Shown here: positions 5,015 through 32,049 of the stretch, in pieces
How positions within the stretch are numbered: the stretch's first letter is position 1
How the letters are laid out: the number at the start of each line of letters is the position of its first letter
Origin: Methanobacteriota archaeon
GTDB taxonomy: Archaea > Halobacteriota > Bog-38 > Methanoflorentales > Methanoflorentaceae
Reading direction: 5' to 3'
Length of the DNA stretch: 32,504 nucleotides
Assembly: GCA_003158275.1 (NCBI GenBank)
Contig: PMIN01000001.1
Span: 1,283 to 33,786, forward strand
The notes under the pieces: model-generated
What the model saw: only the letters and a program-made list of their open reading frames with translations
Database searches by the model: none
What the model was told of the DNA's origin: nothing
Made by a program: the position numbers and the translations under genes

Positions 5015-5968
5015 TTATGCTTCGTGCCTAGTTCTGTATTCAGCACGTCTCGAGTAGTTTGCCATTCGACCAGTCTTAGTCGCTTGTTGTTCCCTAAAGA
5101 ACGCAGAATGGATGGCGGTTTCGTTGTACACAAGCGATGAGCCGACGATCGTGCCTCCTTCAAACCGAACGTCCCATCCGAGCCCTGTTGATTTGAACTT
5201 CTTTTGCGAACATGATTGCGTCTCTTTGACAAACGCGCGGCCATCGTCAAGCGTCGCTTTTCGGCGGCCACTCTTTTTTTGCAGCAATGCGTCCATCACG
5301 TAGCTCTTAACGAGCTTGGGGTGCAGCGCCTCATAGGCGGCGGCGCGTGAGATAAGGTCAAATCCCAAGACTTTTCCGTTGACGAAGACGATGAGCCCTT
5401 TCTGGTTCGGCACGTGCGAAAAGGCATCGAGGCAGGCATCAAGCTCCTTCTCTTTCGCTGCGTAGATGTCAGCCATTGCTCTGGTTGGGGATTCGACGGC
5501 TGCAGCTTCAGCCATGTGATCGATATCGCGCCACACAGCGCTCTGGTCGGAGCGATATTGTTGGGTTCGATCAAGGGACGCGGACACCGATCTTGTACGA
5601 TTTGCCCGCAAGTCCCGCGACATCACGTATCCGGACGCCTTGAAGGTGTCTGACGTGTAGGCCCAGCGTCCTGCCTCCGTGCAGCTGACCGGTATTATGG
5701 TCTCTGAGTGAGCATCCATGAGTACCGATGCGTTGAGTACTCGGTTCTGCTTCGCCCCTTTAAGCTCCTCTCCGTCGAGGAGAAGGATTGATGAGTCGGC
5801 GTCGTTAATCACCTTCAAATCGGGAACTGACCCCCCGGCATTGACTTCAGTCACCACTATGACGCCATCGCGCAGCGCTTCAGCAAGCGTGCCATAGGTA
5901 AGCGTCTCGGGCGCTGTGTGAAACAAAGGAACAGCTGTTACGTTTTTGAAATGCTGTAATTCCCCCAA
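5015..5968 (-). CDS. ARPP-1 (DUF6569) family protein
   Basis: At least 317 residues. The part seen matches the ARPP-1/DUF6569 family: ELQHFKNVTAVPLFH at the N-terminus, EALRDGVIVVTEVNAGGSVP, then SILLLDGEELKGAKQNR, IIPVSCTEAGRW near residue 100, and KGLIVFVNGKVLGFDL near 195. The family was named for its association with ADP-ribosylglycohydrolases and rhodanese-phosphatases; its biochemical activity is not established. The start shown is TTG at 5968, but the reading frame continues upstream through DYIAQIELGE, which looks like the usual family N-terminus. A near-perfect AAGGAGGG at 6008-6015 is placed for an in-frame ATA at 5999-6001, so the true protein may be 328 residues with a rare start codon. 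It heads the minus-strand run and is divergent from the CARF regulator. Confidence 0.8.
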   Translation of the reverse strand: MGELQHFKNVTAVPLFHTAPETLTYGTLAEALRDGVIVVTEVNAGGSVPDLKVINDADSSILLLDGEELKGAKQNRVLNASVLMDAHSETIIPVSCTEAGRWAYTSDTFKASGYVMSRDLRANRTRSVSASLDRTQQYRSDQSAVWRDIDHMAEAAAVESPTRAMADIYAAKEKELDACLDAFSHVPNQKGLIVFVNGKVLGFDLISRAAAYEALHPKLVKSYVMDALLQKKSGRRKATLDDGRAFVKETQSCSQKKFKSTGLGWDVRFEGGTIVGSSLVYNETAIHSAFFREQQATKTGRMANYSRRAEYRTRHEA

Positions 5969-6050: not shown

Positions 6051-6154
6051 TTTAATGATAATATGGCTGATTACTATTTAATATTTTTTATTGAATTTAT
6101 GTTCTAATGATTTAATAGAAAGGAAGATTATTACTTATCTTCACTAAAACACAC

Positions 6155-6216: not shown

Positions 6217-6822
6217 ATGGTCAACGTAATGATTGCAACGGTTGGTTTTGAGTCCGAACCCCTCATCATCGGCATCCAGACCTTTAATATCAAGAGAATG
6301 ATCCTGATTCGAGAGACGGATCCACCTTCGGAGGTTAAGAAGGTCGAGAACCTTATGGCGTCGACCTTTGGAAACGTCATTGACATCGACATCAAAGAGG
6401 TTGATAACTGGTACGACATACTCAGCCTTGTAGACCTCGTCACGTACCTTATCAAAAGCGAGCACGACAAAAACAACCAGGTCTTCGTCAACATCACGGG
6501 CGGACGAAAGACCGCCTCAATAGGCGCCTTGTTGGGTGTTTTTAAGAACGTGAATAAGGTCAAAGAGGTCTTTTATGTCACTGAGGAGGAGCACGGCATA
6601 TTGCCGCTGCCCAAGATCTCGTGGACGCTGCAACGGACTAAGTACAACCTTTTGAGGATGATTTCCGAGGGCAAGAGCGATATTGAGGCACTCAAGGAAG
6701 AGCTTGAGATTAGCAGGACGATGACGTACACGCATCTTCGCGACCTCAAGGACCAAGCGCTGATTATAGAAACCCCCAACGGGTACGACCTTACGTTAGC
6801 AGGGAAACTGCTGCTCATATAG
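6217..6822 (+). CDS. Csa3-like CARF-domain winged-helix transcription regulator
   Basis: The product is 201 residues from ATG 6217, which has GGAGA 6 nt upstream (6206-6210); the frame opens earlier at 6184 without a ribosome binding site. The N-terminal domain has the CARF Rossmann-like layout: first strand VNVMIATVGFES, and the ligand-loop motif NITGGRKTASIGALLG near residues 90-106. The C-terminal part (about 145-201, with LLRMISEGKSDIEALKEEL and SRTMTYTHLRDL) is a winged helix-turn-helix. Csa3 proteins of this design bind cyclic tetra-adenylate or related cyclic oligonucleotides and switch CRISPR or cas promoters. No cas gene is visible here; the neighbours are a helicase-nuclease and BREX. 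It probably controls the divergent control region and/or the downstream genes. Confident on the domains, not on the ligand or target. Confidence 0.85.
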   Translation: MVNVMIATVGFESEPLIIGIQTFNIKRMILIRETDPPSEVKKVENLMASTFGNVIDIDIKEVDNWYDILSLVDLVTYLIKSEHDKNNQVFVNITGGRKTASIGALLGVFKNVNKVKEVFYVTEEEHGILPLPKISWTLQRTKYNLLRMISEGKSDIEALKEELEISRTMTYTHLRDLKDQALIIETPNGYDLTLAGKLLLI

Positions 6823-6867
6823 CCCAGTTGACGCAAAAAAGCACAAAGACGAAGCGAAGCACAACGC

Positions 6868-6873
6868 TTTTAA
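6868..6873 (+). promoter_or_regulatory. TATA-like box for the helicase-nuclease gene
   Basis: TTTTAA at 6868-6873 is centred 24 nt before GTG 6895 and 33 nt before ATG 6904. No ribosome binding site precedes either start. This spacing fits an archaeal promoter giving a leaderless or near-leaderless mRNA. Confidence 0.4.
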
Positions 6874-6894
6874 GTCTTTATCTTTCCTTTCAAC

Positions 6895-9800
6895 GTGTTT
6901 AATATGTTGCTCAACCCCTCTCAACAGGAAGCTGTCGAAGAAGATGGCATTCAGCTCATCATAGCCGGCCCTGGTTCAGGCAAAACCCGGGTGGTAACGG
7001 AAAAGATCCTACACCTCATTAAGAATGGCGTCAAGCCCCAAAGCATTCTCGCCCTGACGTTCTCCGACAAAGCGGCGAGCGAAATGCTCGAGCGGCTCGA
7101 GGGACATATTGACCCCTCTGACATCACGGCCGGCACCTTCCACTCGTTCTGCTGCGACGTGCTTCACGACAATGTCCTCGATTCGGGCATCAGCTTTGCC
7201 TCAGGCGTGATCAGCAGGACAAACCAGCTTGTGTGGGGGCTGCGCAACATAGACGCGTTTGGGTTTGAGGAGATTGAAATCGGAAATAATGCGATAGAAG
7301 TGGTTGAATCGATCATTGACGGGATCAGCGCCTTTAGAGATGAGCTTATCACCCCTGAAGAACTCGAGGTATACCTGCAACGCAAGGGCAACGAACAGCT
7401 CGAAGCAAATGAGCGAGCGTACCTCAACAAGCTCAACGACCTCCTTAAGGTGTACAAAGCTTATGGCGCATACAAGCGGAAGGAGTTGCTTCTCGACTTC
7501 GATGACATGATTCACGAGGCATCGGTGCTTTTTGACCGAAAGCCTACGCTTTTGCAGCGATACCGCGATCGCTACACGCATATCCTCGTCGACGAGTTTC
7601 AAGACACGAATTATGCGCAACTCTATCTCATCAAGCAGCTTGCTGGCGATAACGTCTGCGTCGTCGGAGACGATGACCAATCGATCTATCGGTTCCGCGG
7701 GGCGTACCTGACAAGCTTCACCGATTTTAAGGAGCACTTCGCTAGTTGCACGGAAACGCTTCTAGATCACAATTACCGAAATTCGCGAAACATCCTGATC
7801 TGCGCGCTCCAGCTAATGAGCAGCGCGCCCAACCGTGAGGAAAAGACCCTTGTGACGCGCAACCAGGACGGAGACAAGGTCATCGTTGCCCGCTGCGAAA
7901 ACGAGCAGTCCGAGACGCAATTTGTGTGGCAGCAAATCGAGCGATTGATTGGCACGCCGTTCTTCTCTCGAGCCGATAACAAGGAGCGAGCGCTCACGTA
8001 CGGCGACCTTGTCATACTAAGCAGGCGCCGCATGGAGGGGGCGAAGTACCACGCGGCACTGCGCAACCGGGGGGTACCATGTGAATTTGTCGGCGAAATC
8101 GACTTTTTCGCGACGGCGGTTATTCGCGACGCTATCGCGTATTTGCGCGTCATCGAGAACCCTCTCTTCGCAGGAGTGCATCTTAATCGCATTTTGAAAC
8201 TCTCTGGCGTGACTGAAGTGAACGTGCAGCGGCTTAACGCGTGTGCAGAGCGATTGGCATGGGAAGACGAATCGAGTGACTTCGTTTATGAGTGCATGCT
8301 GGACGCGGCCGCTCTGCTCGCCACACAAGCAGACCACATACGCGAAATCATGCGTACCATCGAGCTGCTGTTGCAGCGAAAGGAGCGCCTCACGCTATCG
8401 GAGCTCGTGTATGATCTTGTTGTGCGTTCGACGGACCTGTACAAACGGAGCCTCCACGACGAGAACTGGCGTGACTTACGGCTGTTGAACAAGCTGTACG
8501 AAATAGCACAAGAGTACGAATCGATTACGAAGCAGCCATCAGTAACCGACTTTCTTGACTATCTTGACCTCCTCAGCGGATTCCATATAGAGCTTGAAGA
8601 AGCTGAACAAACCGATAGCGTCAAGGTCATGACCGTGCACCAGAGCAAGGGCAAAGAGTTTCCGCTCGTTTTTATCGTTGACGCGGCGACCAACCGGTTC
8701 CCCTTACGGTATCAGCAAAAGCCGTTTTACGTGCCAAACGACCTCGCAAGGGGGATGAAGACGGGTGACGACGAGAAAGAGCTCTATCAGCAGGAGGAGC
8801 GCCGCCTCTTCTACGTAGCGATGACGCGGGCTGAGCAGAAACTTTTTGCAACCTACGCAGAGCGGTACGGCCAAAACGTCAACAAGACCAAGCCTTCAAA
8901 GTTCCTCGAGGAGCTTGAGTTTGAAGATAATCCGCGCGTTCAGGTCGTGGACGTGCGCCAAGAGTCCTCGCAGGATGTTAGAACGGTCGAAACCGCTATC
9001 GAACAAGCGAAGACGCGGCTTGAGGACCAAGCCATTCACGCTATCCAGAGCGTGCAGCCGAAGGCAGCGCTCCAGAAGATCGTTGAGCTCGAGAAACTCC
9101 GCTTTCTGGAAAGTGGAAGGCGGCTTGAGGATTTTGACGTGTCTAGCTTCTTGACGGTTGAAGAGACCGATTCCGAACTGCAGCGACTTTTTGAGGGAAA
9201 GCGTGCAGCTTTGATAAGCGAAGACCATCACTTCTCTGCATCAGCGCTCCAGACGTACAGCACCTGTCCTACGCAGTACAAGTTCAGTTATGTCCTGCAC
9301 GTTCCCACGGCCCCAAAAACCTACTTCAACCTTGGACTTGTGGTGCATGAGATTATCGAGCACCTCACTAAGCAAGAGTTGGAAGGTATCCCACCATCAA
9401 AGGAGCAAGCTGCAGCGATCCTCGAGCAATTCTGGTCTTCTGCTGCGTATGCGACGAGACAAAAAGAACGCGAGGACAAGGAGCGCGCTGCACATATGAT
9501 CGAGACCTTCTTAGTATGGCGGGAGCGCAACGAAAACGAGGTCGTCGCCGCTGAGATGAAGTTTCAGTTTACCCTTAACGGTCGGGTGGTGAAAGGTGTC
9601 ATAGACCGCATAGAAAGAACTGCCGACGGACAATACGTCGTAATCGACTACAAAACAGGGTATCAATCGGAGAATAAGAAGAGCATCAGGGAGAGCATCC
9701 AGATGAATGTGTACTCCCTCGCAATCCTTGAGAAGTTTGGCGTTTTGCCGGTTAAAGCCTCTCTCTTTTATGTAAAACACGGGAAAATGGTGGACTATAT

Positions 9801-9954
9801 CCCAGACCGCGAACACGTCGAACTACAGAAGATGCAGCTTGCGAACATAATAGATGACGTTCTGGCAGAACGATTTCCTGAGGCCCCCGCATATCACACC
9901 TGTCGATCGTGCAGTTACAGTGACCTCTGTGATGCTCAGGAGATTAAAGAGTGA
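6895..9954 (+). CDS. UvrD/AddA-like superfamily 1 helicase fused to an Fe-S PD-(D/E)XK nuclease
   Basis: The product is 1019 residues from GTG 6895 (ATG 6904 is an alternative). All superfamily 1A helicase motifs are present: NPSQQEAV, Walker A AGPGSGKT (24-31), motif Ia LTFSDKAASEM, Ib AGTFHSF, motif II DEFQD (233-237), motif III GDDDQSIYRFRGA, motif IV DHNYRN, motif V MTVHQSKGKEF, motif VI RRLFYVAMTRAEQ. The C-terminal quarter is a RecB-type nuclease with D904, D918-Y-K920 and four cysteines (C791, C1003, C1006, C1012; last three as CxxCx5C), the AddB/Cas4-style iron-sulfur staple. It should therefore unwind and cut DNA ends. The family otherwise works as AddAB pairs; here helicase and staple nuclease are in one chain with no partner gene beside it. 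It follows the CARF gene by 72 nt and precedes BREX by 132 nt, same strand. Confidence 0.9.
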   Translation: MFNMLLNPSQQEAVEEDGIQLIIAGPGSGKTRVVTEKILHLIKNGVKPQSILALTFSDKAASEMLERLEGHIDPSDITAGTFHSFCCDVLHDNVLDSGISFASGVISRTNQLVWGLRNIDAFGFEEIEIGNNAIEVVESIIDGISAFRDELITPEELEVYLQRKGNEQLEANERAYLNKLNDLLKVYKAYGAYKRKELLLDFDDMIHEASVLFDRKPTLLQRYRDRYTHILVDEFQDTNYAQLYLIKQLAGDNVCVVGDDDQSIYRFRGAYLTSFTDFKEHFASCTETLLDHNYRNSRNILICALQLMSSAPNREEKTLVTRNQDGDKVIVARCENEQSETQFVWQQIERLIGTPFFSRADNKERALTYGDLVILSRRRMEGAKYHAALRNRGVPCEFVGEIDFFATAVIRDAIAYLRVIENPLFAGVHLNRILKLSGVTEVNVQRLNACAERLAWEDESSDFVYECMLDAAALLATQADHIREIMRTIELLLQRKERLTLSELVYDLVVRSTDLYKRSLHDENWRDLRLLNKLYEIAQEYESITKQPSVTDFLDYLDLLSGFHIELEEAEQTDSVKVMTVHQSKGKEFPLVFIVDAATNRFPLRYQQKPFYVPNDLARGMKTGDDEKELYQQEERRLFYVAMTRAEQKLFATYAERYGQNVNKTKPSKFLEELEFEDNPRVQVVDVRQESSQDVRTVETAIEQAKTRLEDQAIHAIQSVQPKAALQKIVELEKLRFLESGRRLEDFDVSSFLTVEETDSELQRLFEGKRAALISEDHHFSASALQTYSTCPTQYKFSYVLHVPTAPKTYFNLGLVVHEIIEHLTKQELEGIPPSKEQAAAILEQFWSSAAYATRQKEREDKERAAHMIETFLVWRERNENEVVAAEMKFQFTLNGRVVKGVIDRIERTADGQYVVIDYKTGYQSENKKSIRESIQMNVYSLAILEKFGVLPVKASLFYVKHGKMVDYIPDREHVELQKMQLANIIDDVLAERFPEAPAYHTCRSCSYSDLCDAQEIKE

Positions 9955-10028
9955 GCAAAAGCTTGATTGCCGGTCTATCGCATTAGCAGAAGTTCTTTCA
10001 GAAGTCTGTGCATAAGTTAACCGTACTG

Positions 10029-10037
10029 AAATATATG
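10029..10037 (+). promoter_or_regulatory. Archaeal-type TATA box for the BREX operon
   Basis: AAATATATG at 10029-10037, preceded by CTG, matches a TATA element. It predicts a transcript start near 10058-10062, about 25-29 nt before the brxA start. AGGGGA at 10072-10077 would be the ribosome binding site. The box gives BREX its own promoter, separate from the helicase gene. Confidence 0.5.
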
Positions 10038-10086
10038 TAAGTCATAGAAATAGTTGAACAAGGCTAGCTAAAGGGGACGCTCTATT

Positions 10087-10866
10087 TTGAACATGCGTTA
10101 TAATACTTCGTTGGTAGAGTGTGGAGCGGTAATTCAGGAGAGTTTGATTCTGCTCGCGGAGTACCAAAAAACCCCAGACTGGTCTGAAATAAGGAGCCTA
10201 TCATATTCTGACAACATACTGAACAAGAGATCATCTGCCAGGACAAAAAAAGTACTGCGGACTTTCAGAAAAAGGTATGTCGATGCCGATGAGCTACCAA
10301 AAATCGAGAGCCTTTCTCTTTTCGTGACCAGGGATTTATCATATACGGCCAAAACGCAATCGTTGCTCCCATATGTGACGAGGGGCGATGCGTTACTTAG
10401 TAAGGCAACACATTGTTTGGTATGGCCCAGATTTGCGTCATCGAATACAAGTTCAAATCTGTCAAAGTCGGATGTTATGCGCTTTTTTGAGCAGGAGGGT
10501 GCCACCCATCAGGAGATGCAAGCATGGAGTCCTAAAGTAGTCGAGCGGTGGATTCAACACTTTTTGGCGGTTCTGCGCGAATTTGATCTTATGGAAAAAT
10601 CGCCGCGTACGAATTTGAAAAAGCCGCTAGTCAGGAAAGAAGTATTCGCCTTCTTCTGCATCTGGCTTCTAAATGAGGGAATATCTGGTATTCAGATATT
10701 CAATTTCCCTGTATGGAAAGATCTCCTCCTAAATGCGGATGAGATTGAATACCTTCTGCTAGAGTGTCACGAAATGGGATGGATTGAATATGCCCGAGCT
10801 GGTGACATCATTTCAGTCACTAGTCATTACGAATCACCAAAGGAGTGGATTTATGGCTTGGGATAA
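10087..10866 (+). CDS. brxA: BREX protein BrxA (DUF1819)
   Basis: First gene of the type 1 BREX operon, 259 residues. BrxA is a small protein with a DNA-binding winged-helix fold, needed for phage restriction in some BREX systems; its exact step is unknown. The sequence fits DUF1819: an N-terminal YNTSLVECGAVIQESLILL, a central basic region (RTKKVLRTFRKRY), and C-terminal helices ending in a short beta/winged segment (EMGWIEYARAGDIISVTSHY). The start is TTG 10087, 9 nt after AGGGGA; ATG 10093 is possible but the spacer would be 15 nt. It overlaps brxB by 14 nt. Identification rests on family resemblance plus the invariant gene order that follows. Confidence 0.85.
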   Translation: MNMRYNTSLVECGAVIQESLILLAEYQKTPDWSEIRSLSYSDNILNKRSSARTKKVLRTFRKRYVDADELPKIESLSLFVTRDLSYTAKTQSLLPYVTRGDALLSKATHCLVWPRFASSNTSSNLSKSDVMRFFEQEGATHQEMQAWSPKVVERWIQHFLAVLREFDLMEKSPRTNLKKPLVRKEVFAFFCIWLLNEGISGIQIFNFPVWKDLLLNADEIEYLLLECHEMGWIEYARAGDIISVTSHYESPKEWIYGLG

Positions 10867-11395
10867 AGACAAAATGGAGACGTTGAAGCAATTGGTTATA
10901 GCCACTATGAAAAGGTTGAGGCATACGGCTGTTCCGTTTTACCTATACTCTTATGCTCCGACCGATGAGCTAGTATGCTTGCGCGAATTTGATATTATGG
11001 CAAAAGAGTTGCAGTATCAAGGTCATTCAGTCGACTGTCACTACCTGTCTCAACTCCTGATAGAAGCGTTGCAGAATCTGGACTATTTAGATGAAGAAAC
11101 ATTGAACGAAGAAGACCAAACTTTCTTGGATATTGAGGAAAACCTACGAATTCGTCTGCCAAAGGAGCTGGTTTCCCTGCTGAATGTCGCGCTTAAGGGC
11201 GATCGTTCTCATTGCACAATCTTGCTAAGAGCAGGTTCTTTATATCCATTCGTCCACCCATCTACACTTCTCTCCCAGATGGAAGCGGTAATCCACACTA
11301 CGGTCGTTCTGCCGTTTCCCGGGAGAAAAGACGGTCCAATGCTCGGTGACCTTCAGTATGCAGGCAGGAGCTATTATCACGGAACGTGGTTGTGA
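10853..11395 (+). CDS. brxB: BREX protein BrxB (DUF1788)
   Basis: The product is 180 residues. ATG 10853 is chosen because AAGGAGTG lies directly upstream and MAWDKDKMETL is a sensible N-terminus; an earlier in-frame ATG at 10784 has no ribosome binding site and overlaps brxA far more. DUF1788 features: central EFDIMAKELQYQGHSVDCHYL, and the C-terminal VVLPFPGRKDGPMLGDLQY, a hallmark-like ending of the family. BrxB is an uncharacterised core component that appears in complexes with BrxC and PglZ in type 1 systems. It overlaps the brxA end by 14 nt and stops 5 nt before brxC, implying coupled translation. Confidence 0.88.
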   Translation: MAWDKDKMETLKQLVIATMKRLRHTAVPFYLYSYAPTDELVCLREFDIMAKELQYQGHSVDCHYLSQLLIEALQNLDYLDEETLNEEDQTFLDIEENLRIRLPKELVSLLNVALKGDRSHCTILLRAGSLYPFVHPSTLLSQMEAVIHTTVVLPFPGRKDGPMLGDLQYAGRSYYHGTWL

Positions 11396-11400
11396 CACAT

Positions 11401-14400
11401 ATGAAGATTGGCGAGGTTTTTGAGCGCGATCCAACGAGGCTGACGGATTATGTGGTTAAAGTCAGTCTTCAAGACCGCAAAGACGTAGGAAACGAAGTGG
11501 AGGAGTATGTTGTTACCCCGCAGATACGAAAGGATATTGACAACATCATCGATGGCTTTTTAGAGAGCAGACAGCGCCGGCCGTCAGACGTATGCAGCTG
11601 GATATCTGGTTTTTTTGGATCAGGGAAAAGTCATTTTTTAAAGATAATAGGATACGTCCTCGCGAACAAAGAGATCGAACTATCGAATACAGACGTAGTC
11701 GGGGCGGCCGAGTACTTCTGCAAGAAACACGACCTTGAGTATGGACCGATCCTTTCCAAAGAGCTCAAAACCAGATCCATATTTATAAACCTCCTCGATG
11801 ATGACACATTTGGCCAAAACGGTCCCGGAATCACGCGAATTATCTATAGGACGCTCCTACGGGAAACTGGCTTTTCAGATGTATTTTGGATCGCTGAAAT
11901 TGAGAAGGATTTACGCAGCCGAGGTGTTTGGGAGGCTTTTCTTTCTTCTGTAAGCGCGCAAACAGGATCTGATTGGACCAGATTAAGAGAGACGGCACGC
12001 GCTAGAAGCGCTCTCGTACACGGCCTCATGGACGTCTTGCCTGAAGATTACTCGGATATCACGCTCGCACAAGCTAGTATCGATGACGTAAAACACGATT
12101 TCAAGATTGAGCCTAGCAGATTGGCAAAGCTCCTTTACGAGGAGGCTTTGAACCTCGACCCAGAGACAGGACGGATCGTTTTGCTTCTTGATGAAGTCGG
12201 ACTCTACGTTGGAGAGAACGCTGATCGTCTGGCAGAGCTTGACATTCTTCCAGAGATGATCTCCCAACACGGAAATGGAAAAGTGTGGCTTTTTGTGACT
12301 GCACAAGAAGCGCCTGAAGAGATTCTTCCTCGCATCGCGAAGCAGCGCGGTCAATTTGAAAAGATACGAGATCGCTTCCCGATGAAATATCAGTTGGTAC
12401 CTGAAAACATCGACACGGTTGTGAAGCAGCGACTGCTCGACAAAACAAGTCTAGCGAGCGACAAGATTAGAAAACTCTTTGATGATTATTCTGGGGTCTT
12501 GTCAATGGCAGCGACAATAAAGCACCCTACGCGATTGGAGGCTTTGCTGACTCACGTCGAACGAGAAGACTTCAGGAAATCATATCCGTTGTTACCGTAT
12601 CACGTCAGGTTGATTCAGCAAATCCTAGGACTAATACGATCGCAAGGTGGCATTTTTGGTGAGATGACAGGCAGGGAGAGAGCTGTATTGTCGGTCGTTC
12701 AGTCACTTCTTGTGAACGATTTTAGCAAAGGAAAATTGATTGATGGGGAGTTAGGAAAGCTAGCGACTTTCGACCTTGTTTATGATGCAATAGAGGAGGA
12801 GCTCAAAGCGATCGGATCTGAACAGCAAAGCATAATAGGCAACGACATAGCAAAGCTAGGCCAGTTTGACTATCTTAGAATCGCTGACGTTGCGAAGGCG
12901 CTGTTTCTCCTCCAACAAGTGAGGGATTGGGTGCCCTGCACTTTGGAAAACATCGCCGCAGTTCTTTATCCTCAGCTTGGAACCAATAGAACATCGCACG
13001 AAAACCTAGTTGGTGAATGCATCAAGAAACTGACCGCCGAACAATGGATTTCAAGTGAAGAAGGGAACTATCGCTTCTTAACTGAGGTAGAAAGAAGCTT
13101 TGACCAAGAAGTAAACGAACGAGAGCCCTTTGTACTAAACGGCGACAAGCGTACGTTCGTTATTGAAAAAGTGAAGTCTGACCTGAAAGAGTACGGCACG
13201 TGCAATTACCGAACCAAAGCTTTCGATGTGATCGTCGAGGCTGATAATGAAGTCTTAACGTCGAAAGGATACATCAAGCTTGAATTTTTCTCACCTTACT
13301 ACGCGGCTAACGATCCGACGCTTGAAACAAGGTTGTTCAGAGAGAGCTTGGATCACGACGATACACTCTACTGGATTTCAGAAGCTATCCCTGAATTTGA
13401 ACAAGCTGTGACGAGGATAATAGCGACAAAACAAGTCCTTGGCACGAAGCAGAACAGAGCCCAGTCACGCGAAGAGCAGAAAGCATTAGACCGACCAACA
13501 AAAAACCTCATCGCACTAGAAGAAGACTTAGAGAGAAAACTCAGAAGGGGTACACAAAGAGGCAAGCTAATCCACGTAGGCGAAGAACAGCTCATTGAGA
13601 ACTCAAAGGACGCTTCTGAAATCGTTAAAGCCAAAATTCGAGATATAATACAGCAAATTTTTACTGAGTTCGAATTAGCGGCAGTGCAAGTTATAGGGGA
13701 GAATGAACTCATTCGAAAGATTCTTGGCTGGACGGGTTCGCCGCTACCATCGGTTTTTAGAGATCTTGAACTGATCGATGACAAAAATGAGATTCTAACA
13801 GATCGTCCTGTGGCTTCGCAGATCCTCTCACAGGTAAGACAACGGGACGATAGGAATAATACGGGACAAGACATTAGTGCTTTTTTTGAAGAACCTCCTT
13901 ATGGATGGGACCCGCGAGTAATTCGTCTAGTTCTTGCGACGTTGTTTTGGAATGGCACAATAAACGTGGAGCTCAATGGTAGAGTATACGAATCACCTAG
14001 CGAGGCAGGTTCTTTTGATGCTTTTACGGCAATAAAGTTTAGAACCGCCCATTTTCAGGTAGCGAAAGACGTTCCGGCGGACACAAGGGAGAAGATCAAG
14101 AATGGTATTTTGGAACTTTTTGGGGAGGGTTCTGGAAATGCCATAGATGAAATAGATAGCAAGCTGACCGTGATTATCGATCGCCGGCTTCCGGAAGCGA
14201 GAGACCTCTCCGGAATGGCATCAGCCCTTGACATTGCTACATCGCCATCAATTCTGGATTTCCTTCAATCCTTGCAAAGAATCAAAGACATGCCAAGCCG
14301 TCATCGGCGACTCTTTGGTTTCTTAGAAGAGTATGATTCACTGAAATCGACTAAGCCGAGCTTCAGCTCGCTTAAAAAATTCGCTGAGGATGGCAAGATT

Positions 14401-15033
14401 AATGAATATAAAGAGATTACGGCCTTCACCTCAAGTTGCTCCGAAGCGCTTATCTCGGCGGACGCGCAGCACGACGCGGAGATACGTAAGCTTCAATCTG
14501 ACATGCGCTCTGTCGAATTTGTTGAGCGGTGGAGTGCCATACGAGATGTTTTTGAGAGACTTCGCGAATCCTACAAGCGTTACTATACGAATTGCCACAA
14601 GAAGTTGGATGAGGAGGTGAATAGAGCCCTTCAATCGCTCCGACAGCACGAAAGCTTCAACAATGGGCTAGCACGGAATCAAGATCTCGAGCCGCTTACA
14701 CGTCTTCTATGCCAGGTCGCTAGTATTCAAGGATTAGATGAAACTCCATATAGGTGCGCTCAATGTGACAAGGGATACTTCCTCTTACGACAAAATCTCC
14801 AAAGCGTCTCCGCGATACAAGCCGAAATATCAAACGAGCTTGATAAGAGATGCGGCAAATCGGATGTTCCTATCGAGGCGTTAGTGATCGACAGATCCTT
14901 GGTATCAAGTAGCGATATTCAAAAGACGATCAACGAAATTAAGCTCTGGTCAGAAAATCAGGCGTTGCAGCACAAGAAAGTGCGCATTCTCGTGAAAATG
15001 GAGGTTATGAATGGACAGGACACGCCGAAATAA
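11401..15033 (+). CDS. brxC: BREX P-loop ATPase BrxC (PglY-like)
   Basis: The product is 1210 residues from ATG 11401, which gives the family-typical start MKIGEVFERDPTRL; a GTG at 11386 is in frame but lies inside brxB. Walker A GFFGSGKS is at residues 70-77 and Walker B LLLDE ends at 264-265, followed by the AAA+-like sensor strand VWLFVTAQEAPEE. A long helical middle (about 650-800, rich in E/K/R) and a C-terminal CxxC pair (YRCAQCDKGYF) follow. BrxC is the large ATPase of BREX, required for both DNA methylation and phage exclusion in characterised type 1 systems, and is thought to remodel or position the other subunits on DNA. Its last 23 nt overlap pglX. GC content looks lower by eye than in the helicase upstream. 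Confidence 0.93.
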   Translation: MKIGEVFERDPTRLTDYVVKVSLQDRKDVGNEVEEYVVTPQIRKDIDNIIDGFLESRQRRPSDVCSWISGFFGSGKSHFLKIIGYVLANKEIELSNTDVVGAAEYFCKKHDLEYGPILSKELKTRSIFINLLDDDTFGQNGPGITRIIYRTLLRETGFSDVFWIAEIEKDLRSRGVWEAFLSSVSAQTGSDWTRLRETARARSALVHGLMDVLPEDYSDITLAQASIDDVKHDFKIEPSRLAKLLYEEALNLDPETGRIVLLLDEVGLYVGENADRLAELDILPEMISQHGNGKVWLFVTAQEAPEEILPRIAKQRGQFEKIRDRFPMKYQLVPENIDTVVKQRLLDKTSLASDKIRKLFDDYSGVLSMAATIKHPTRLEALLTHVEREDFRKSYPLLPYHVRLIQQILGLIRSQGGIFGEMTGRERAVLSVVQSLLVNDFSKGKLIDGELGKLATFDLVYDAIEEELKAIGSEQQSIIGNDIAKLGQFDYLRIADVAKALFLLQQVRDWVPCTLENIAAVLYPQLGTNRTSHENLVGECIKKLTAEQWISSEEGNYRFLTEVERSFDQEVNEREPFVLNGDKRTFVIEKVKSDLKEYGTCNYRTKAFDVIVEADNEVLTSKGYIKLEFFSPYYAANDPTLETRLFRESLDHDDTLYWISEAIPEFEQAVTRIIATKQVLGTKQNRAQSREEQKALDRPTKNLIALEEDLERKLRRGTQRGKLIHVGEEQLIENSKDASEIVKAKIRDIIQQIFTEFELAAVQVIGENELIRKILGWTGSPLPSVFRDLELIDDKNEILTDRPVASQILSQVRQRDDRNNTGQDISAFFEEPPYGWDPRVIRLVLATLFWNGTINVELNGRVYESPSEAGSFDAFTAIKFRTAHFQVAKDVPADTREKIKNGILELFGEGSGNAIDEIDSKLTVIIDRRLPEARDLSGMASALDIATSPSILDFLQSLQRIKDMPSRHRRLFGFLEEYDSLKSTKPSFSSLKKFAEDGKINEYKEITAFTSSCSEALISADAQHDAEIRKLQSDMRSVEFVERWSAIRDVFERLRESYKRYYTNCHKKLDEEVNRALQSLRQHESFNNGLARNQDLEPLTRLLCQVASIQGLDETPYRCAQCDKGYFLLRQNLQSVSAIQAEISNELDKRCGKSDVPIEALVIDRSLVSSSDIQKTINEIKLWSENQALQHKKVRILVKMEVMNGQDTPK
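15000..15005 (+). promoter_or_regulatory. Perfect Shine-Dalgarno site inside brxC for pglX
   Basis: GGAGGT lies within the last codons of brxC and is 5 nt from the pglX ATG at 15011. It fixes that start over other in-frame choices and shows that the methylase can be translated independently within the overlap. Confidence 0.75.
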
Positions 15034-18000
15034 CCTCCGCACCGTTGTGGGAAAAGCAAGGAAGATAATCGAACAAGATTTAGGCACTCAGCTTCTTAAA
15101 TTGGGGATAAAGCCAAATAACGGTACGATTCGTTCTCGAAGCGCGATTGACCCCCAGCAAGCAAAAATAAGAGCAGCTATCGAAGACGTACTGCGAAAAG
15201 AACGAAGCGCAGTCGACAGCGACGAAGCCGCAATTCAGAGATACATTCGGCACGCCGGCTCCACTTTTGTCAATCGAATCGCGGCACTTCGAGCATTAGA
15301 AGTTAGAGGCTTCATAATCGAGACGGTAGTCCAACGTAGCAAGTTTGGAGGATTTAGCCTTCGCGGCCGAAACATAGCTGAGAAGGATCCGAAATTGAAT
15401 CCACAGCAAGTACTCGAAGCTACCCTCAGAGAAGCATTTGATGAAATTGGACAAGAAATAGGGGCGTTGTTTGAGCTTGATAATGAGTATAGCCTTCTTT
15501 TCCCTACCACTAAAGCGATTAAAGACCTAATATCCCTCCTTACGGAACAAGTCACCGAAGAGGATTGGCTACAAGACGACATCGTTGGCTGGGTTTATCA
15601 ATATTACAATGATGAAATTCGGGCTGAATTCAGAAAAACAAAAAAGCCATTGAACGCAGATGATGTGCCAATCGTAAACCAATTCTATACGCCTCACTGG
15701 ATAGTCCGGTTACTAACCGACAACACACTGGGGCGCTTATGGCTCGAGCGTCAGGAAAGATGCTCATATTTAGCAAGTGAGGGGCAGAAACGTCAATTTT
15801 ACGAACTGCGGCGAATAGAGCACGAAAAAAGATCGGAATACAATTCGTCTTTGAGCTTATCTCAGCGCAAATATCAGAATGTTGATACCTTCTGCTCGTA
15901 TTTCTTGCCACTACCGGAGAAACCACCACAACGGAGAAAAACAAAAAGAGCGCGAGACATTAAAATACTCGATCCGGCTTGTGGCAGTGGACATTTCTTA
16001 ATCTATGCTTTTGACGTTCTTTATCGGATATACCTGGAAGATGAGCCTGAGCTATCAAAAGAGGCAATTCCGCAACTAATCCTCGAAAATAACCTTTTTG
16101 GAATCGACATAGATCTTCGTGCTGTGCAGCTTGCCGCGTTAAACCTCTATTTGAAGGCCAAGTCATACAATACAGATCTTCGAATATCGAAGATGAATCT
16201 AGTGTGCGCTGATTCACATATCGCTAATAGCGAAAACCGAGAGAAGTTTCTGGAGCGGTTTGCCCGCGATCCCGCTTTGCAGAAAATTTTTAAGACACTT
16301 TTTGAAAAACTTAACCACACTAATGAACTCGGCAGCCTTCTTAAGGTCCGCGATCCTTTCGAAGAGCTGCTAGAAATACGGCGAACAAAGCCTACGCAAG
16401 CTCATTTCGTCCAGAATAATAATCTGGCAGTGGCGTCAAGAAGCAGCGCCTTGGAATCCGCCAAGCTAGCGATGGAACGCACAAGGGCGCATGAGGCGAT
16501 GGTGATTCCAAAGAAAACAACTATTGAAGAAATGTTGAATGAGCTGGAAGCTTTTGAAAGGGAATGCGTGGAGCGGCAGGATATCGGGAGCCTGATTTTT
16601 GCAGCCGAGACTGAGAAATCAACTGGCCTCTTATCCTTGCTTTCGCAAAAATATGACGTAATACTAATGAATCCGCCGTATGGCGGCATGCCGAAAAAAT
16701 CTAAGGATTACGCTAAAAAGAATTACCCAAAAACGCATCACGAGTATTCGGCTGCCTTCATTGAGCAAGCAGTTAACCTAGTTGAACCAGACGGATACAT
16801 CGGGGGATTAGTAAGTCGCAGCTTCATGTTTCTAAAGAGATATCAATGGCTTCGCGAAACTTTGTTGACAGAGGAGACATCTTTGAACTCCGTTTTCGAT
16901 TTAGGCTTAGGAGTTCTTGAAGGGGCCACTGCCAGATGGACCGCACTGGTAACTCAAAAAAGTGACCCGCGCGAACGCACTCTCGAGAGCACCTCTGAAA
17001 CCGCCTTTTTGCGTTTGGTTGAGGCAAACAGCGAGGAACAAAGGATTAGTTGCTTTGAGAAAGCGTTGAATTTAGTAGTTGATAGTCGTAAGAGCGACAT
17101 AGTCCATTACGCCTCACCTCAGGAGCTTTTAAAGGTTCCAGGGATGCCGTATAGCTATTGGATCACTCACTCAATTAGGGAGATATTTGCCCGCTTCCCG
17201 CCACTAGATAAAGATGGTGCTGGTGTCAAAAACCAGGTCAAGCTTGCAGATGTAAGAGAAGGTTTGTTAACGAGCCAAAATGAGAGATTCATTCGTCAAT
17301 ACTGGGAGATTCCAAAAGAGAGTCTTGGAGAAGCGAAATGGGTTCCGTTCATAGAAACAGGAGAGGGGACTAGGTTTTATTCTGATATATTACTGGTTGT
17401 TAACTGGGAAGACGACGGACGCGAACTGAAAGCGCTTAAGACATCCATAACACCAAATCAGAAATACTACTTTAAGGAGGGGGTGTACTGCCCAGACATT
17501 GTAAGTTCACCATGTCTTAGTTTTCGCAAACTACCGCCAGGTGTAATCTTCGGGGGCAACGTCTCAGCAGCTTTTCCTTCGAAGAACGACTACTCGCTCC
17601 CTTTGCTTGCACTGGGGAATTCGACTCTCCTTGCGTATCTTTTCAGAGTCTTAGACGATCTTTCGCATCATCGAAGCCCAAGCTACGTATCAAAACTGCC
17701 AATAAACCTGACCGGCTTAAGATCTAGGACTTTACTAGCTGCGGCATTAGAAGCATACTATTTGACCAAAGAGTATCATACAGGGTCAGAAATTTCGCCG
17801 TTATTTTTGAAACCGTGGCTTCTCCAAATGGTCGGGCCAGAATCATCAGAAGCGGAACTGTTATTGAAAGAATCACTCTCGAACGAACTGAGCTACTTGG
17901 ATTGGAGCCATATCCGCCGAATACATAACATTTCAGGCTCTGTCGATATGTCTTTGCGAGAACTTGCTCTGCGCGCGATAAGACGAAAACAGCTCCTTGA

Positions 18001-18928
18001 CGACCGACTCAAGGAGATTCAAGAGACGATCGATACAGAGGTTTTTAAGCTTTACACAGTCACAGAAGAAGATCGCAAAATCATTGAACTGGAGCTATTA
18101 GGAGATGCTGAAAAAAGTAGGGGTCGAAATAAGGCCCGGGACGCTAAATATCTTCCTGTCAAACAAGCGGAAGCGATCGAAATCGATAGAGCAATAAAGA
18201 GTGAAACGGCTGCCTTAGTCTCATATTACGTCAAACAAGCTATAAGTGAAGATCAAGACGGGGTGATTCCACTCAATGATTCTTATGAAGAGGATTCACT
18301 CGCTAGACGTGTAATAGTGGCGATGGCTAACGATTTTGGTGCAGATCGCATGAACTCTATTCTTGAAGAGATCCATGAATTGTTGGGGGCTGCACTCGAA
18401 GACTGGATACAAAATGACTACTTTGAGTATCACGTTGACCAGTACAAGCGCCGTCCAATTCACTGGCAGGTGACGTCTAAGGGATTCGCGGACTCTCGCG
18501 ACGAGGCAACAGCATTTTCCTGCTTTGTAAATTATCATAAATTGACCAGAGATACCATTCCGAAGATTATCGCGCACTATCTTGCGCCTGTGAAACGTAG
18601 TGTTTACACCCGACACGAGAATCTCGAGAACGACGTTTATCAAGCCAAACTGAGCAACGATCGAACGCAACTAACGCAAAAAGCGAAAGACCTGCAAGAT
18701 TCACAAAACTCCCTCAATCAACTGGAAGCTTTTGAAGATGCCCTCACAAATGTCACAAAACCGCAAATGAGCAGCTCGAAACCATCTATTTCCTCTTGGT
18801 TCCAGGAAAAGGTAAAAGAGACGTCAGAAAATGGCTGGAATCCTGTCTTGGACTATGGCGTGTTAGTTAATATTCAACCACTCAAGCAAGCAAATCTCCT
18901 GCAAAAAAGCGTGGCGAAGGTAAAGTAG
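15011..18928 (+). CDS. pglX: BREX adenine-specific DNA methyltransferase PglX (BrxX)
   Basis: The product is 1305 residues, near the usual type 1 PglX length of about 1200. N6-adenine methyltransferase motifs are intact: motif I DPACGSGHFL starting at D321 (S-adenosylmethionine binding) and catalytic motif IV NPPYGG at 554-559. Before them is QFYTPHWIVRLLTDNTLG, typical of PglX and type IIG/III-like methylases. The C-terminal half (from about 740) carries the target-recognition part, with ISPLFLKPWLLQM and a helical tail. It methylates one strand of a non-palindromic site in host DNA, marking self; unmarked phage DNA is blocked. No nuclease motif is seen. The start follows a GGAGGT site; the stop abuts the pglZ ATG with no gap. 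Confidence 0.95.
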   Translation: MDRTRRNNLRTVVGKARKIIEQDLGTQLLKLGIKPNNGTIRSRSAIDPQQAKIRAAIEDVLRKERSAVDSDEAAIQRYIRHAGSTFVNRIAALRALEVRGFIIETVVQRSKFGGFSLRGRNIAEKDPKLNPQQVLEATLREAFDEIGQEIGALFELDNEYSLLFPTTKAIKDLISLLTEQVTEEDWLQDDIVGWVYQYYNDEIRAEFRKTKKPLNADDVPIVNQFYTPHWIVRLLTDNTLGRLWLERQERCSYLASEGQKRQFYELRRIEHEKRSEYNSSLSLSQRKYQNVDTFCSYFLPLPEKPPQRRKTKRARDIKILDPACGSGHFLIYAFDVLYRIYLEDEPELSKEAIPQLILENNLFGIDIDLRAVQLAALNLYLKAKSYNTDLRISKMNLVCADSHIANSENREKFLERFARDPALQKIFKTLFEKLNHTNELGSLLKVRDPFEELLEIRRTKPTQAHFVQNNNLAVASRSSALESAKLAMERTRAHEAMVIPKKTTIEEMLNELEAFERECVERQDIGSLIFAAETEKSTGLLSLLSQKYDVILMNPPYGGMPKKSKDYAKKNYPKTHHEYSAAFIEQAVNLVEPDGYIGGLVSRSFMFLKRYQWLRETLLTEETSLNSVFDLGLGVLEGATARWTALVTQKSDPRERTLESTSETAFLRLVEANSEEQRISCFEKALNLVVDSRKSDIVHYASPQELLKVPGMPYSYWITHSIREIFARFPPLDKDGAGVKNQVKLADVREGLLTSQNERFIRQYWEIPKESLGEAKWVPFIETGEGTRFYSDILLVVNWEDDGRELKALKTSITPNQKYYFKEGVYCPDIVSSPCLSFRKLPPGVIFGGNVSAAFPSKNDYSLPLLALGNSTLLAYLFRVLDDLSHHRSPSYVSKLPINLTGLRSRTLLAAALEAYYLTKEYHTGSEISPLFLKPWLLQMVGPESSEAELLLKESLSNELSYLDWSHIRRIHNISGSVDMSLRELALRAIRRKQLLDDRLKEIQETIDTEVFKLYTVTEEDRKIIELELLGDAEKSRGRNKARDAKYLPVKQAEAIEIDRAIKSETAALVSYYVKQAISEDQDGVIPLNDSYEEDSLARRVIVAMANDFGADRMNSILEEIHELLGAALEDWIQNDYFEYHVDQYKRRPIHWQVTSKGFADSRDEATAFSCFVNYHKLTRDTIPKIIAHYLAPVKRSVYTRHENLENDVYQAKLSNDRTQLTQKAKDLQDSQNSLNQLEAFEDALTNVTKPQMSSSKPSISSWFQEKVKETSENGWNPVLDYGVLVNIQPLKQANLLQKSVAKVK

Positions 18929-21418
18929 ATGCAGAAAACCCGCCTCGAGGATGCTGTTCGAGATATCATCGAGTCAGACTTTAGAGAGAAGCAAATAATC
19001 GTATGGTACGACGAGGGTGAAACTTTAAAAACCGCAATCAAAAGAGCGATACCGGACTACGCGAAAGCCATCTTCTTTGAGGGAAGCTACCTTAAGGTCA
19101 GGGCCATCGTTGAACAGCAGGATCGAGAGTTTAAGCATAAATGGTTTATATATGTTGGCGACCAGCCACGAGAAAGAAGCTGGCTTAAGGATTACGAGCT
19201 ATTTGGCGTACGCCACGAATTGACTCTAGCAAGAATTCTTGCGAGCTCATTTGGCTTAAAGTCAAACACTCGTGTTAGGGAACTATTATCTGGAAAGGGC
19301 GGCCGACTTCTGACAGAGAACTGGAGTCGTTTCATCGATGCTACGGACGTTCCGCTAACTGCGAAAAGCGTCATCGAAGGTCTTCTTGCTGCTATTTTTG
19401 GAATGCTTCACGGTTTTGATATTAAAACAGCCGTCCTTACCTATCTTAGCGATCCAAAATACGCACGAGAACTCGCTGAGTACGACATTTATCCAGAATT
19501 TTGGCGAAAGATCTCGCACGAAATCTGGGGCAGCGAGCGTATCTCTAGCGTCCAGAATCAAACACAAGATCGTGAGCATCTTGCCGCTACGGTGCTTCTC
19601 ACTGAGTTTGTCGAGCGCTCCAACGGCTTCTGTGAAAACGAATTTGCGCAGTTGATTCCCAAGAAAGAGCGGCGAAGCACGTTGGTTGCACTGGTTGACG
19701 AGTGGACGCAATACGGCCCATTCGCTGATGCGTTTTTCGAATGGGCAAGTCTTGTCCAAGCAAAATATGGTATAGAGGACCGAATCCAGAATGAGCCGTC
19801 GATTGCACGAAGTGTCAGTTTTGAAGCTATTGATACCGCCCTACTCAGGCAACTTGTGACGCGAATTAATCGAGAGGGGATAGAAAAGACTGTTCCACTG
19901 ATGGAACAAATTGCTCCAGTCCGCAGTCAAACTATCTGGGCTCGCAGCAAGAAAGTGGCTTTTTGGGATGCAATCTCTGTGGCGGCATCCTTGATGCGCC
20001 GGATCAAAGATGCACAGAAGCAGATTGCGAACGAGCGTCTATCTGCTGACGATCTGATACGACGGTATACTGACGATGATGGATGGTGGGAATTGGATGA
20101 CATGTCGATCTCTTTGACTGCGCTCGGACCTTCAGGTGGTCCGGAGATGCAACATGCCATCCTGGAGCCAGCTACTCAATATTATGGCAAATGGCTATCC
20201 AATTTGGGTACACGTTTCTCTGAAGCCGTTGTTCAGTCAAAAATGTGGACTTCGCACACGATAGGGCCACAGAGGACCTTTTTTAACGAAGCGGCCGTAT
20301 CAAAAAATGAGCGAGTGGCGATCTTGCTGATCGACGCGCTCCGTTATGACCTTGCAAAACGATTAGCGGCGAAGCTTAGCGATAAAGGCTACGAAGTAAC
20401 GACCCGTAATGTCCTCTCGTCATTACCCTCTACGACGGAGGTTGGCATGGGGGCGCTTCTCCCATACCACAACAATAACTTCCTTCTCGACGTCAAAGAC
20501 AGTAAGATCAAGGTTGCGATAGGGGCGAACGAAATAACCACGAGAACGCAGAGAAAAGAATGGATTACTAGATGTTTTCCGAGTGCTGTTTTTTTCGACA
20601 TTAATGAGATAACCAGAAAAACTCCTCGACAGCTTCATGACACGATCGAAAATGCCTTCCAGCTTTTTGTCCTCGACCACGAAGTAGACCAGATGGGCAC
20701 ATTTAACACAACGGACGTCAGTGCGAGCGTGTTCTTAAGCCTCGTCGACCGAATAGCAAAAGCGGTTGAGTCACTACACCAAGCAGGTGTATCTAAAGTA
20801 GTCATAGGAACTGACCACGGCTTTCTTGTTTTACCACGTGAGCTGCGAGGAGATGCTCCGATTAAGGGTATTCCAGGGAACCAAGATACGTTCAAATCGT
20901 GGCGTTTTGTAATCGGCAAACCTCCTGGTGATCCAACTCTAATTTCATTCAGCTACGAAGACCTAGGGCTCGGGTCTGGCGGAATCGCACGCTTCCCTCG
21001 TAGCACGCATATATTCGCTTTGCGCGGAACTCAAGATTTCTTCCACGGCGGAATCAGCCTGCAAGAGAATTGTCTTTTATGCATTACGTCGGTTAGCAAG
21101 TTAGAAGATCTGGAGCTGGTCAAAGTGCACGTTGAAGTTCCGGAGCAACTCAACCCTCAAGATATTCCCATTACGCTAAAGCCAGAACATAACGTTACTA
21201 GGTCGCCTCGGAGCGTTATCGTCGAGGTGTTGGAGGGCGAGAAGGTTCTTTATCAAACACCGGAGCATAAAATCTTCGTAGAGCCCGTGCACGTCCACAT
21301 TGCGCTGCAGGAGACCCCGCAGAACTTGAGGATTAAGGTCTACGACGTCGACACGTATGAAGTGCTCTTTAGCGAAACACGAGATACCATAAGCCGCGGA
21401 TTTGATGATTTTCTCTAG
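18929..21418 (+). CDS. pglZ: BREX alkaline-phosphatase-like protein PglZ (BrxZ, type 1)
   Basis: The product is 829 residues, standard for type 1 PglZ. The ATG begins immediately after the pglX stop, with AAGG 8 nt upstream. The N-terminal half is the family-specific part (IIVWYDEGETLKTAI near 22). The alkaline-phosphatase-superfamily core starts with LLIDALRYD (D469, D474: metal and substrate region), continues with SSLPSTTEVGMGALLP, and includes the late metal motif GTDHGF (D629, H630). PglZ is essential for BREX; members have metal-dependent phosphodiesterase or nuclease-like activity in vitro and are structural partners of PglX and BrxB/C. The metal ligands are conserved, so it is probably active. 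It is followed after 14 nt by brxL. Confidence 0.94.
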   Translation: MQKTRLEDAVRDIIESDFREKQIIVWYDEGETLKTAIKRAIPDYAKAIFFEGSYLKVRAIVEQQDREFKHKWFIYVGDQPRERSWLKDYELFGVRHELTLARILASSFGLKSNTRVRELLSGKGGRLLTENWSRFIDATDVPLTAKSVIEGLLAAIFGMLHGFDIKTAVLTYLSDPKYARELAEYDIYPEFWRKISHEIWGSERISSVQNQTQDREHLAATVLLTEFVERSNGFCENEFAQLIPKKERRSTLVALVDEWTQYGPFADAFFEWASLVQAKYGIEDRIQNEPSIARSVSFEAIDTALLRQLVTRINREGIEKTVPLMEQIAPVRSQTIWARSKKVAFWDAISVAASLMRRIKDAQKQIANERLSADDLIRRYTDDDGWWELDDMSISLTALGPSGGPEMQHAILEPATQYYGKWLSNLGTRFSEAVVQSKMWTSHTIGPQRTFFNEAAVSKNERVAILLIDALRYDLAKRLAAKLSDKGYEVTTRNVLSSLPSTTEVGMGALLPYHNNNFLLDVKDSKIKVAIGANEITTRTQRKEWITRCFPSAVFFDINEITRKTPRQLHDTIENAFQLFVLDHEVDQMGTFNTTDVSASVFLSLVDRIAKAVESLHQAGVSKVVIGTDHGFLVLPRELRGDAPIKGIPGNQDTFKSWRFVIGKPPGDPTLISFSYEDLGLGSGGIARFPRSTHIFALRGTQDFFHGGISLQENCLLCITSVSKLEDLELVKVHVEVPEQLNPQDIPITLKPEHNVTRSPRSVIVEVLEGEKVLYQTPEHKIFVEPVHVHIALQETPQNLRIKVYDVDTYEVLFSETRDTISRGFDDFL

Positions 21419-21432
21419 TAAAAGTGATAAAA

Positions 21433-24151: not shown

Positions 24152-24165
24152 ATAATCTTCTCTCA

Positions 24166-24172
24166 TTTTTTT
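24166..24172 (+). terminator. Oligo-T archaeal terminator after the DUF6884-like gene
   Basis: Seven T residues lie 14 nt past the stop codon, without a stem. Archaeal RNA polymerase can terminate at T-runs of this kind. It is the likely right end of the plus-strand defence island. Confidence 0.45.
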
Positions 24173-29210: not shown

Positions 29211-29221
29211 CGTTGAAAGCC

Positions 29222-30814: not shown

Positions 30815-30819
30815 TCGTG

Positions 30820-31932: not shown

Positions 31933-32049
31933 TTTAAGACCTGTCGGAGGCAACAAAGCGTTATGAGTGCAAAAATTGACAACAGTACACAGTCTTACTA
32001 TTACTTGCTATTTGTCGAGTTTACTTTTGCAGATTCGGCATAACTGCAC

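What the first reader, a model, noticed from the sequence alone, without database searches (positions are those of the whole stretch)
6217..9954. CARF regulator without cas genes next to a single-chain helicase-nuclease and BREX
A Csa3-like CARF/winged-helix protein normally serves CRISPR systems. Here it is 72 nt upstream of a UvrD-like helicase with an Fe-S nuclease domain, followed by a full BREX operon on the same strand. A cyclic-oligonucleotide-sensing switch on a helicase-nuclease or on BREX would be a new coupling. The motifs are seen directly; the functional link is inferred from adjacency.
Basis: partly seen in the sequence, partly recalled or inferred. Interest (0 to 1): 0.72.

Follow-up and report, generated by a model that had tools for sequence, protein, structure and literature searches.

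The report
CRISPR-type regulator beside defence helicase-nuclease
In a peat-fen archaeon a sensor-type gene regulator normally found with CRISPR sits beside a DNA-unwinding-and-cutting enzyme and a BREX anti-virus operon, with no CRISPR gene found in its genus; the regulator-enzyme pairing recurs in several unrelated methanogen lineages, so it looks like a real CRISPR-independent defence module whose trigger signal is unknown.

Summary
A Csa3-like CARF/winged-helix gene (6217-6822) lies 72 nt before a single-chain UvrD/PD-(D/E)XK Fe-S helicase-nuclease (6895-9954), followed by a complete type-1 BREX operon (10087-23463). Comparison makes the CARF-helicase link more than an accident. It recurs in a second genome of the genus without BREX, in Methanolobus (four loci, three with BREX nearby), in Methanomethylovorans (one on a plasmid) and in Methanobacteriaceae. 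The CARF tree needs at least five changes of this label. In Methanosarcinaceae-like genomes the helicase-nuclease itself is strongly BREX-linked (11 pairs within 15 kb, 0.19 expected). The link is not obligate: the same genus has CARF-less copies beside Dnd or type I R-M genes, BREX is seen in one of seven genomes, and about half of CARF relatives adjoin cas genes. Cyclic-oligoadenylate control is unsupported: Cas10 was found in none of 13 genomes tested, and the Csa3 cA4 pocket is only partly conserved. Best reading: a CARF regulator, placed like the WYL regulator BrxR, controls an accessory helicase-nuclease that serves exchangeable modification-based defences. Its ligand is unknown; a divergent ARPP-1 gene hints at a nucleotide- or ADP-ribose-type signal. 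Function is inferred.

The parts
5015..5968 (-). ARPP-1 protein (predicted sugar/ADP-ribose-associated enzyme), divergent from the CARF gene
   Evidence: Pfam PF20208 329 bits; ARPP-1 beside a CARF also in Methanobacteriaceae L191 and in Methanolobus-type L120, and as a joined remnant in G001 L017
6025..6076 (.). candidate operator region: inverted repeat GTCGTAGT-10-ACTACGAC (6025-6050) and direct repeat GGCT[A/G]ATTACTA (6035-6046, 6065-6076, 30 bp apart)
   Evidence: read from sequence; inverted repeat listed, fold z -1.65; function not tested
6217..6822 (+). CARF + winged-helix regulator, Csa3/HFX_2341-like
6861..6894 (+). promoter-like stretch of the helicase-nuclease, shared with CARF-less copies
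   Evidence: DNA homology to G004 C79 and G000 C84 begins at 6861/6867; alignment
6895..9954 (+). single-chain UvrD helicase + Fe-S PD-(D/E)XK nuclease (UvrD-Cas4/pfam12705-type fusion)
10087..10866 (+). brxA
   Evidence: PF08849 78 bits
10784..11395 (+). brxB (start codon may lie further 3')
   Evidence: PF08747 40 bits; PADLOC BrxB
11386..15033 (+). brxC
   Evidence: NF033441 583 bits, cut-off 400
15011..18928 (+). pglX (BREX methyltransferase)
   Evidence: Eco57I / N6_Mtase domains
18929..21418 (+). pglZ
   Evidence: PF08665 57 bits; PADLOC PglZ 199 bits
21424..23463 (+). brxL
   Evidence: TIGR02653 781 bits, cut-off 628
25927..31956 (-). rad50-mre11-herA-nurA-type operon, the far anchor of the exchangeable segment
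   Evidence: Pfam; homologues on alternative contigs G000 C84 (rad50 96%) and G004 C9 (rad50 95%), and nurA in G002 C184

Best explanation
This is a CRISPR-independent use of a Csa3-type regulator. The CARF-wHTH protein most likely forms a dimer that binds repeats at its own promoter and sets expression of the neighbouring UvrD/Fe-S nuclease. The helicase-nuclease is an accessory DNA degrader of a variable defence island: in the window it sits with BREX, elsewhere with Dnd, type I R-M, DISARM-like, Wadjet-type, DUF499/DUF1156 or type I-B CRISPR genes. It would degrade DNA that these modification-based systems have blocked or cut. The CARF pocket would sense an infection-linked nucleotide not made by Cas10. 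Shown: domains, active-site residues, recurrence, several changes of partner on the CARF tree, no Cas10 or Cas1 found in the genus. Inferred: dimerisation, DNA binding, direction of regulation, ligand, joint action with BREX.
For: Same genus: CARF+helicase again in G002 without BREX. Methanosarcinaceae-like family (112 genomes): 5 CARF-helicase pairs within 5 kb against 0.05 expected by uniform placement, plus a contig-edge case in G332; four are divergent with about 420-510 bp between. M. hollandica plasmid NC_019972 carries annotated csa3 and an ATP-dependent helicase 2.9 kb apart. Of 56 CARF loci, 12 adjoin a UvrD-type helicase, including 7 of 13 in Methanobacteriaceae, where no cas gene was detected nearby. 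Two of those are single-chain UvrD-PDDEXK and five lie beside a UvrD gene; in the member scanned (L220) that helicase is accompanied by a separate PDDEXK gene and an Exo_endo_phos gene. A more distant bacterial relative (L229) overlaps an SF1 helicase-REase gene. CARF tree: the helicase label needs at least 5 changes on well-supported branches. The helicase family is BREX-linked: 11 BrxL-helicase pairs within 15 kb against 0.19 expected. G246 assembles BREX, Wadjet-type genes, helicase, ARPP-1 and a different CARF-wHTH.
Against: Orientation is not conserved: codirectional in the window genus, divergent in Methanolobus, convergent in Methanobacteriaceae. Only the divergent form implies a shared control region. 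CARF-less helicase copies exist in the same genus, with the same upstream box. Both genes live in defence islands, and uniform placement ignores island clustering and shared ancestry, so the chance figures are too optimistic. The Methanosarcina mazei CARF-wHTH protein MM_0565 bound its own promoter and CRISPR leaders but showed no direct effect on cas transcription (PMC7465815), so adjacency need not mean regulation. 17 of 56 CARF loci have neither neighbour.
Confidence: 0.5

Rival explanations
1. Defence-island hitchhiking: CARF regulator and helicase-nuclease are merely neighbours in a hot spot where defence genes are exchanged; the regulator acts on itself or on distant genes.
For: The locus is an exchange site: homology to sister contigs breaks at 6861 and about 9950 and resumes at about 25100, with BREX, type I R-M, Dnd or CHAT genes found beside the helicase in different copies. 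Orientation varies, CARF-less copies exist, and about a third of CARF loci have neither cas nor helicase.
Against: Short distances repeated in at least four lineages, also with a split nuclease and with a different CARF subfamily in G246; 12 of 56 CARF loci adjoin the same helicase class although defence islands hold many gene types.
Confidence: 0.3
2. One reading: CARF senses cyclic tetra- or hexa-adenylate and switches the helicase-nuclease and/or BREX.
For: Csa3 of Saccharolobus binds cA4 (PMC8844856). The window CARF keeps V-G-F of motif 1 and T94-G95-G96-R97-K98 at motif 2. The trio with BREX recurs.
Against: Cas10 palm domain not found in 13 of 13 genomes, several 99% complete. Motif 1 lacks N/D11 and F14 in the window and lacks the glycine in Methanosarcinaceae. 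BREX absent in sister genomes. CD-NTase cyclases were not searched.
Confidence: 0.12
3. The CARF protein is a leftover Csa3 from a lost CRISPR-Cas locus, now decaying.
For: Most relatives with an identified partner serve cas operons (27 of 56 have at least one cas gene). G001 holds only a truncated CARF joined to a truncated ARPP-1.
Against: 94% protein identity and intact frames in two genomes while the neighbouring helicase has only 78%. No Cas1 in the whole genus. Helicase linkage also in lineages without nearby cas genes.
Confidence: 0.08

Closest known systems
Csa3 / CasR CARF-wHTH regulators (TIGR01884; Csa3 of Saccharolobus, MM_0565 of Methanosarcina mazei)
   Same: Domain order, size, best fold match (2wte, 6wxq, 6w11), TIGR01884 above cut-off.
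   Different: No cas genes or Cas10 found in the genus; partner is a helicase-nuclease; cA4 motif 1 only partly kept.
UvrD-Cas4 (pfam12705) helicase-nuclease fusions described in PMC5704561
   Same: Same domains and Fe-S cysteines; predicted there to be an ancillary part of several defence systems, next to type III R-M or Dcm/Vsr genes.
   Different: That paper's text mentions neither CARF nor BREX or Dnd. Here the partners are CARF-wHTH, BREX, Dnd, type I R-M and others.
BrxR and other WYL regulators of BREX and defence islands (PMC9122589, PMC9122601)
   Same: Works-like comparison: wHTH plus ligand-binding domain just upstream of a type-1 BREX operon.
   Different: CARF instead of WYL, and a helicase-nuclease gene between regulator and brxA; the sensing domains are different families.
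ARPP two-gene neighbourhoods with a WYL regulator (PMC9503650)
   Same: ARPP paired with a ligand-binding transcription factor.
   Different: Here ARPP-1 is divergent from a CARF-wHTH gene.

Membership tests
Csa3 (TIGR01884 CARF-wHTH) | score over curated cut-off | tested here: met
   73.4 bits against 60.2
Csa3 (TIGR01884 CARF-wHTH) | CARF fold followed by winged HTH | tested here: met
   model m60701cd6d699; best PDB match Csa3 2wte E 4e-9, whole-chain TM about 0.5
Csa3 (TIGR01884 CARF-wHTH) | linkage to a CRISPR-Cas locus | tested here: not met
   no cas gene recognised in the window; Cas1 in 0 of 7 genomes of the genus
Csa3 (TIGR01884 CARF-wHTH) | cA4-binding motifs 1 and 2 as revised in PMC8844856 | tested here: inconclusive
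   motif 1 V-G-F-E-S-E-P lacks N/D11 and F14; motif 2 T-G-G-R-K has K in place of R98
UvrD-Cas4 fusion (pfam12705) | UvrD helicase plus PDDEXK_1 in one chain with four-Cys Fe-S site | tested here: met
UvrD-Cas4 fusion (pfam12705) | same monophyletic helicase branch as in PMC5704561 | not tested
   no tree with that paper's sequences was built
BREX type 1 | six genes brxA-brxB-brxC-pglX-pglZ-brxL in order | tested here: met
BREX type 1 | WYL regulator BrxR upstream (present in some, not all, type-1 loci) | tested here: not met
   no WYL gene among the scanned neighbours; CARF-wHTH present instead
cOA signalling (type III) | a Cas10 cyclase in the same genome | tested here: not met
   PF22335 in 0 of 13 genomes; control genomes ring; window MAG 70% complete

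The most novel reading that the evidence does not exclude
CARF regulators paired with helicase-nucleases form a widespread CRISPR-independent signalling arm of archaeal innate immunity. A non-Cas10 nucleotide signal, perhaps handled by ARPP-1, induces a DNA-degrading enzyme shared by BREX, Dnd and R-M cassettes.
Probability: 0.3. Interest if true: 0.82.

Novelty: new variant of a known kind. Interest (0 to 1): 0.6.

Why it matters
The cA4-Csa3 structure paper (PMC8844856) names Csa3 homologues in organisms lacking Cas10 and CRISPR as of high interest for finding other ligands. The window genus, and the helicase-linked CARFs of cultured Methanolobus bombayensis, M. psychrotolerans and Methanomethylovorans hollandica, give concrete test proteins: no Cas10 was found in their genomes, and each has a nearby candidate target gene. 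BREX has been described as lacking a nuclease (PMC9122589); a helicase-nuclease found within 15 kb of BrxL in 11 pairs in one archaeal family is a candidate for the missing degrading step.

Tried and rejected
First genome-contig scan with the single CARF protein found nothing; it worked with the alignment. CARF relatives in viral contigs: none. A shared CARF operator motif across cas-linked and helicase-linked promoters: enriched 8-mers were weak and not consistent, so not claimed. Rfam and tRNA scans of the window: nothing. The idea that CARF is the dedicated regulator of BREX was rejected, because BREX is missing next to the same CARF-helicase pair in G002 and from the other six genomes of the genus. 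Sequence search of the PDB with the CARF protein gave only weak partial hits; the fold search settled it. One fold-strand stretch (L117) did not cover the whole hairpin it was aimed at. The single-sequence structure job was superseded by the alignment-based one and its result was not used.
Full report
Observation. The window is contig C59 of a 2.1-Mb, 70%-complete MAG whose class holds only seven genomes of one genus. A sister genome is deposited as 'Euryarchaeota archaeon isolate fen_29' (PMYA01000004.1), that is, a fen archaeon. A CARF/winged-helix gene (6217-6822) precedes a 1019-aa UvrD-PD-(D/E)XK protein (6895-9954) by 72 nt, and a complete type-1 BREX operon follows after 132 nt. All lie on the + strand. 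The CARF protein passes the Csa3 model; its AlphaFold model is confident and matches Csa3 and CRISPR ring nucleases in the PDB. The four Fe-S cysteines and the nuclease residues of the helicase-nuclease are invariant in 17 aligned family members.

Within the genus. CARF and helicase recur together in G002 (94% and 78% identity), followed there by a CHAT protein, not BREX. BrxL is found only in the window's genome; the other six have only Lon-type partial matches. G004 has an 88%-identical helicase without CARF, next to an HD nucleotidase and dndBCD-dndA; a second helicase copy in the window's own MAG (77%) lies beside hsdM-hsdS-hsdR. G001 keeps only a truncated CARF joined to a truncated ARPP-1. 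At DNA level, homology between the window and the CARF-less copies starts at 6861-6867 and stops at about 9930-9950. It resumes at about 25100 towards rad50-mre11-herA-nurA. So the helicase and the rad50 operon bracket an exchangeable segment, here filled with BREX, and CARF/ARPP-1 is an optional block on the other side. The short box upstream of the helicase is shared with the CARF-less copies, so the helicase probably has its own promoter.

Beyond the genus. In a 295-genome sample of the phylum, 29 genomes carry a clear helicase-nuclease homologue. In the 112 held genomes of the Methanosarcinaceae-like family, 30 have the helicase, 41 a CARF homologue and 33 BrxL. In genomes with both genes, 11 BrxL-helicase pairs lie within 15 kb (0.19 expected) and 5 CARF-helicase pairs within 5 kb (0.05 expected), under uniform placement. 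This null ignores island clustering and relatedness, so only the direction of the result should be trusted. CARF, helicase and BREX occur together in G260, in M. psychrotolerans (BrxL 13.9 kb from the helicase, whose frame is interrupted by a stop), and in M. bombayensis contig 2 (BrxC and PglXI). G246 combines BREX, a Wadjet-type jet operon, the helicase, ARPP-1 and a CARF-wHTH of another subfamily. The M. hollandica pair sits on plasmid NC_019972.

A scan of the genome-contig collection with the CARF alignment returned 56 loci. By my reference models 21 lie beside two or more cas genes, 6 beside one, 12 beside a UvrD-type helicase, 17 beside neither. In Methanobacteriaceae 7 of 13 loci are helicase-linked and none showed a cas gene. 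Two of these are single-chain UvrD-PDDEXK (L181, L191) and five are Methanobrevibacter-type loci with a UvrD gene; in the one scanned with Pfam (L220) a separate PDDEXK gene and an Exo_endo_phos gene lie between it and CARF. L191 also has ARPP-1 divergent from CARF, as in the window. Pfam scans of some neighbours in other Methanobacteriaceae loci showed no Cas protein, but rarer cas types could be missed by my models. In the CARF tree the helicase label needs six changes, at least five on well-supported branches; the Methanolobus/Methanomethylovorans group (99/91) is nested inside cas-linked relatives. The association was therefore gained or lost several times, not inherited once as a frozen pair.

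Signal. Cas10 was found in none of 13 genomes and Cas1 in none of the genus's seven. The Methanolobus-type genomes do have Cas1. Published cA4 motif 1 (hydrophobic-G-F-N/D-x-hydrophilic-F; PMC8844856) reads V-G-F-E-S-E-P here, so two positions fail; motif 2 reads T-G-G-R-K. A nucleotide ligand remains plausible, cA4 is doubtful. The ARPP family is proposed to act on ribose moieties of ADP-ribose and is known beside WYL regulators (PMC9503650). Its repeated position beside CARF suggests, without proof, that it makes or removes the ligand.

Mechanism and rivals. The best-supported model is a CARF regulator that controls an accessory helicase-nuclease serving exchangeable modification-based defences. 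The main rival is island hitchhiking, favoured by variable orientation and CARF-less copies. The cOA-switch model is weak. M. mazei MM_0565, a CARF-wHTH protein tied to a type I-B locus as our Methanosarcina relatives are, is dimeric and binds its own promoter, yet had no direct effect on cas transcription (PMC7465815). This warns against reading regulation from adjacency.

Literature. The UvrD-Cas4 fusion is known as an ancillary defence protein (PMC5704561), without mention of CARF or BREX. The 2026 BREX survey (PMC12839542) mentions CARF only in its reference list and UvrD not at all. The main CARF classification paper was not available, so priority for the CARF-helicase link cannot be fully excluded.

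Noticed in passing
L117, L134, L133, L130, L138, L139, L119: about 160-260 nt upstream of the CARF start: The region upstream of CARF in Methanolobus and Methanomethylovorans holds a hairpin (GGCAGCAT/ATGCTGCC in one genus, CCGGGTCACTGT/ACAGTGACCCGG in the other; fold z about -4 in L133 and L138) and a second inverted repeat ATTCAC..GTGAAT beside the CARF TATA box. It may be an operator or a small RNA.
   Followed up: partly
G000:C59:299-1300 (overlaps and precedes the window start), L014 8538-9743, L016 11932-13137: A YfbR-like HD nucleotidase gene is the divergent neighbour of the helicase-nuclease in the two CARF-less copies and lies near the CARF block in the window contig and in G001.
   Followed up: partly
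window 9951-25100: Exchangeable defence segment: BREX here, type I R-M or Dnd beside the same helicase in other contigs, CHAT protein in G002.
   Followed up: partly
window 23666-24151: 161-aa ORF after brxL with no Pfam or PADLOC match.
   Followed up: no
L112, L113 (G201, G186): Helicase-nuclease followed on the same strand by SNF2 helicase, a small gene, N6_N4 methylase and a second helicase: a DISARM-like cassette.
   Followed up: no
L229 (Marinamargulisbacteria MAG): CARF-wHTH gene overlapping by a few bases an 1800-aa SF1 helicase with an MTES_1575 REase domain; could be a bacterial version of the same pairing.
   Followed up: partly
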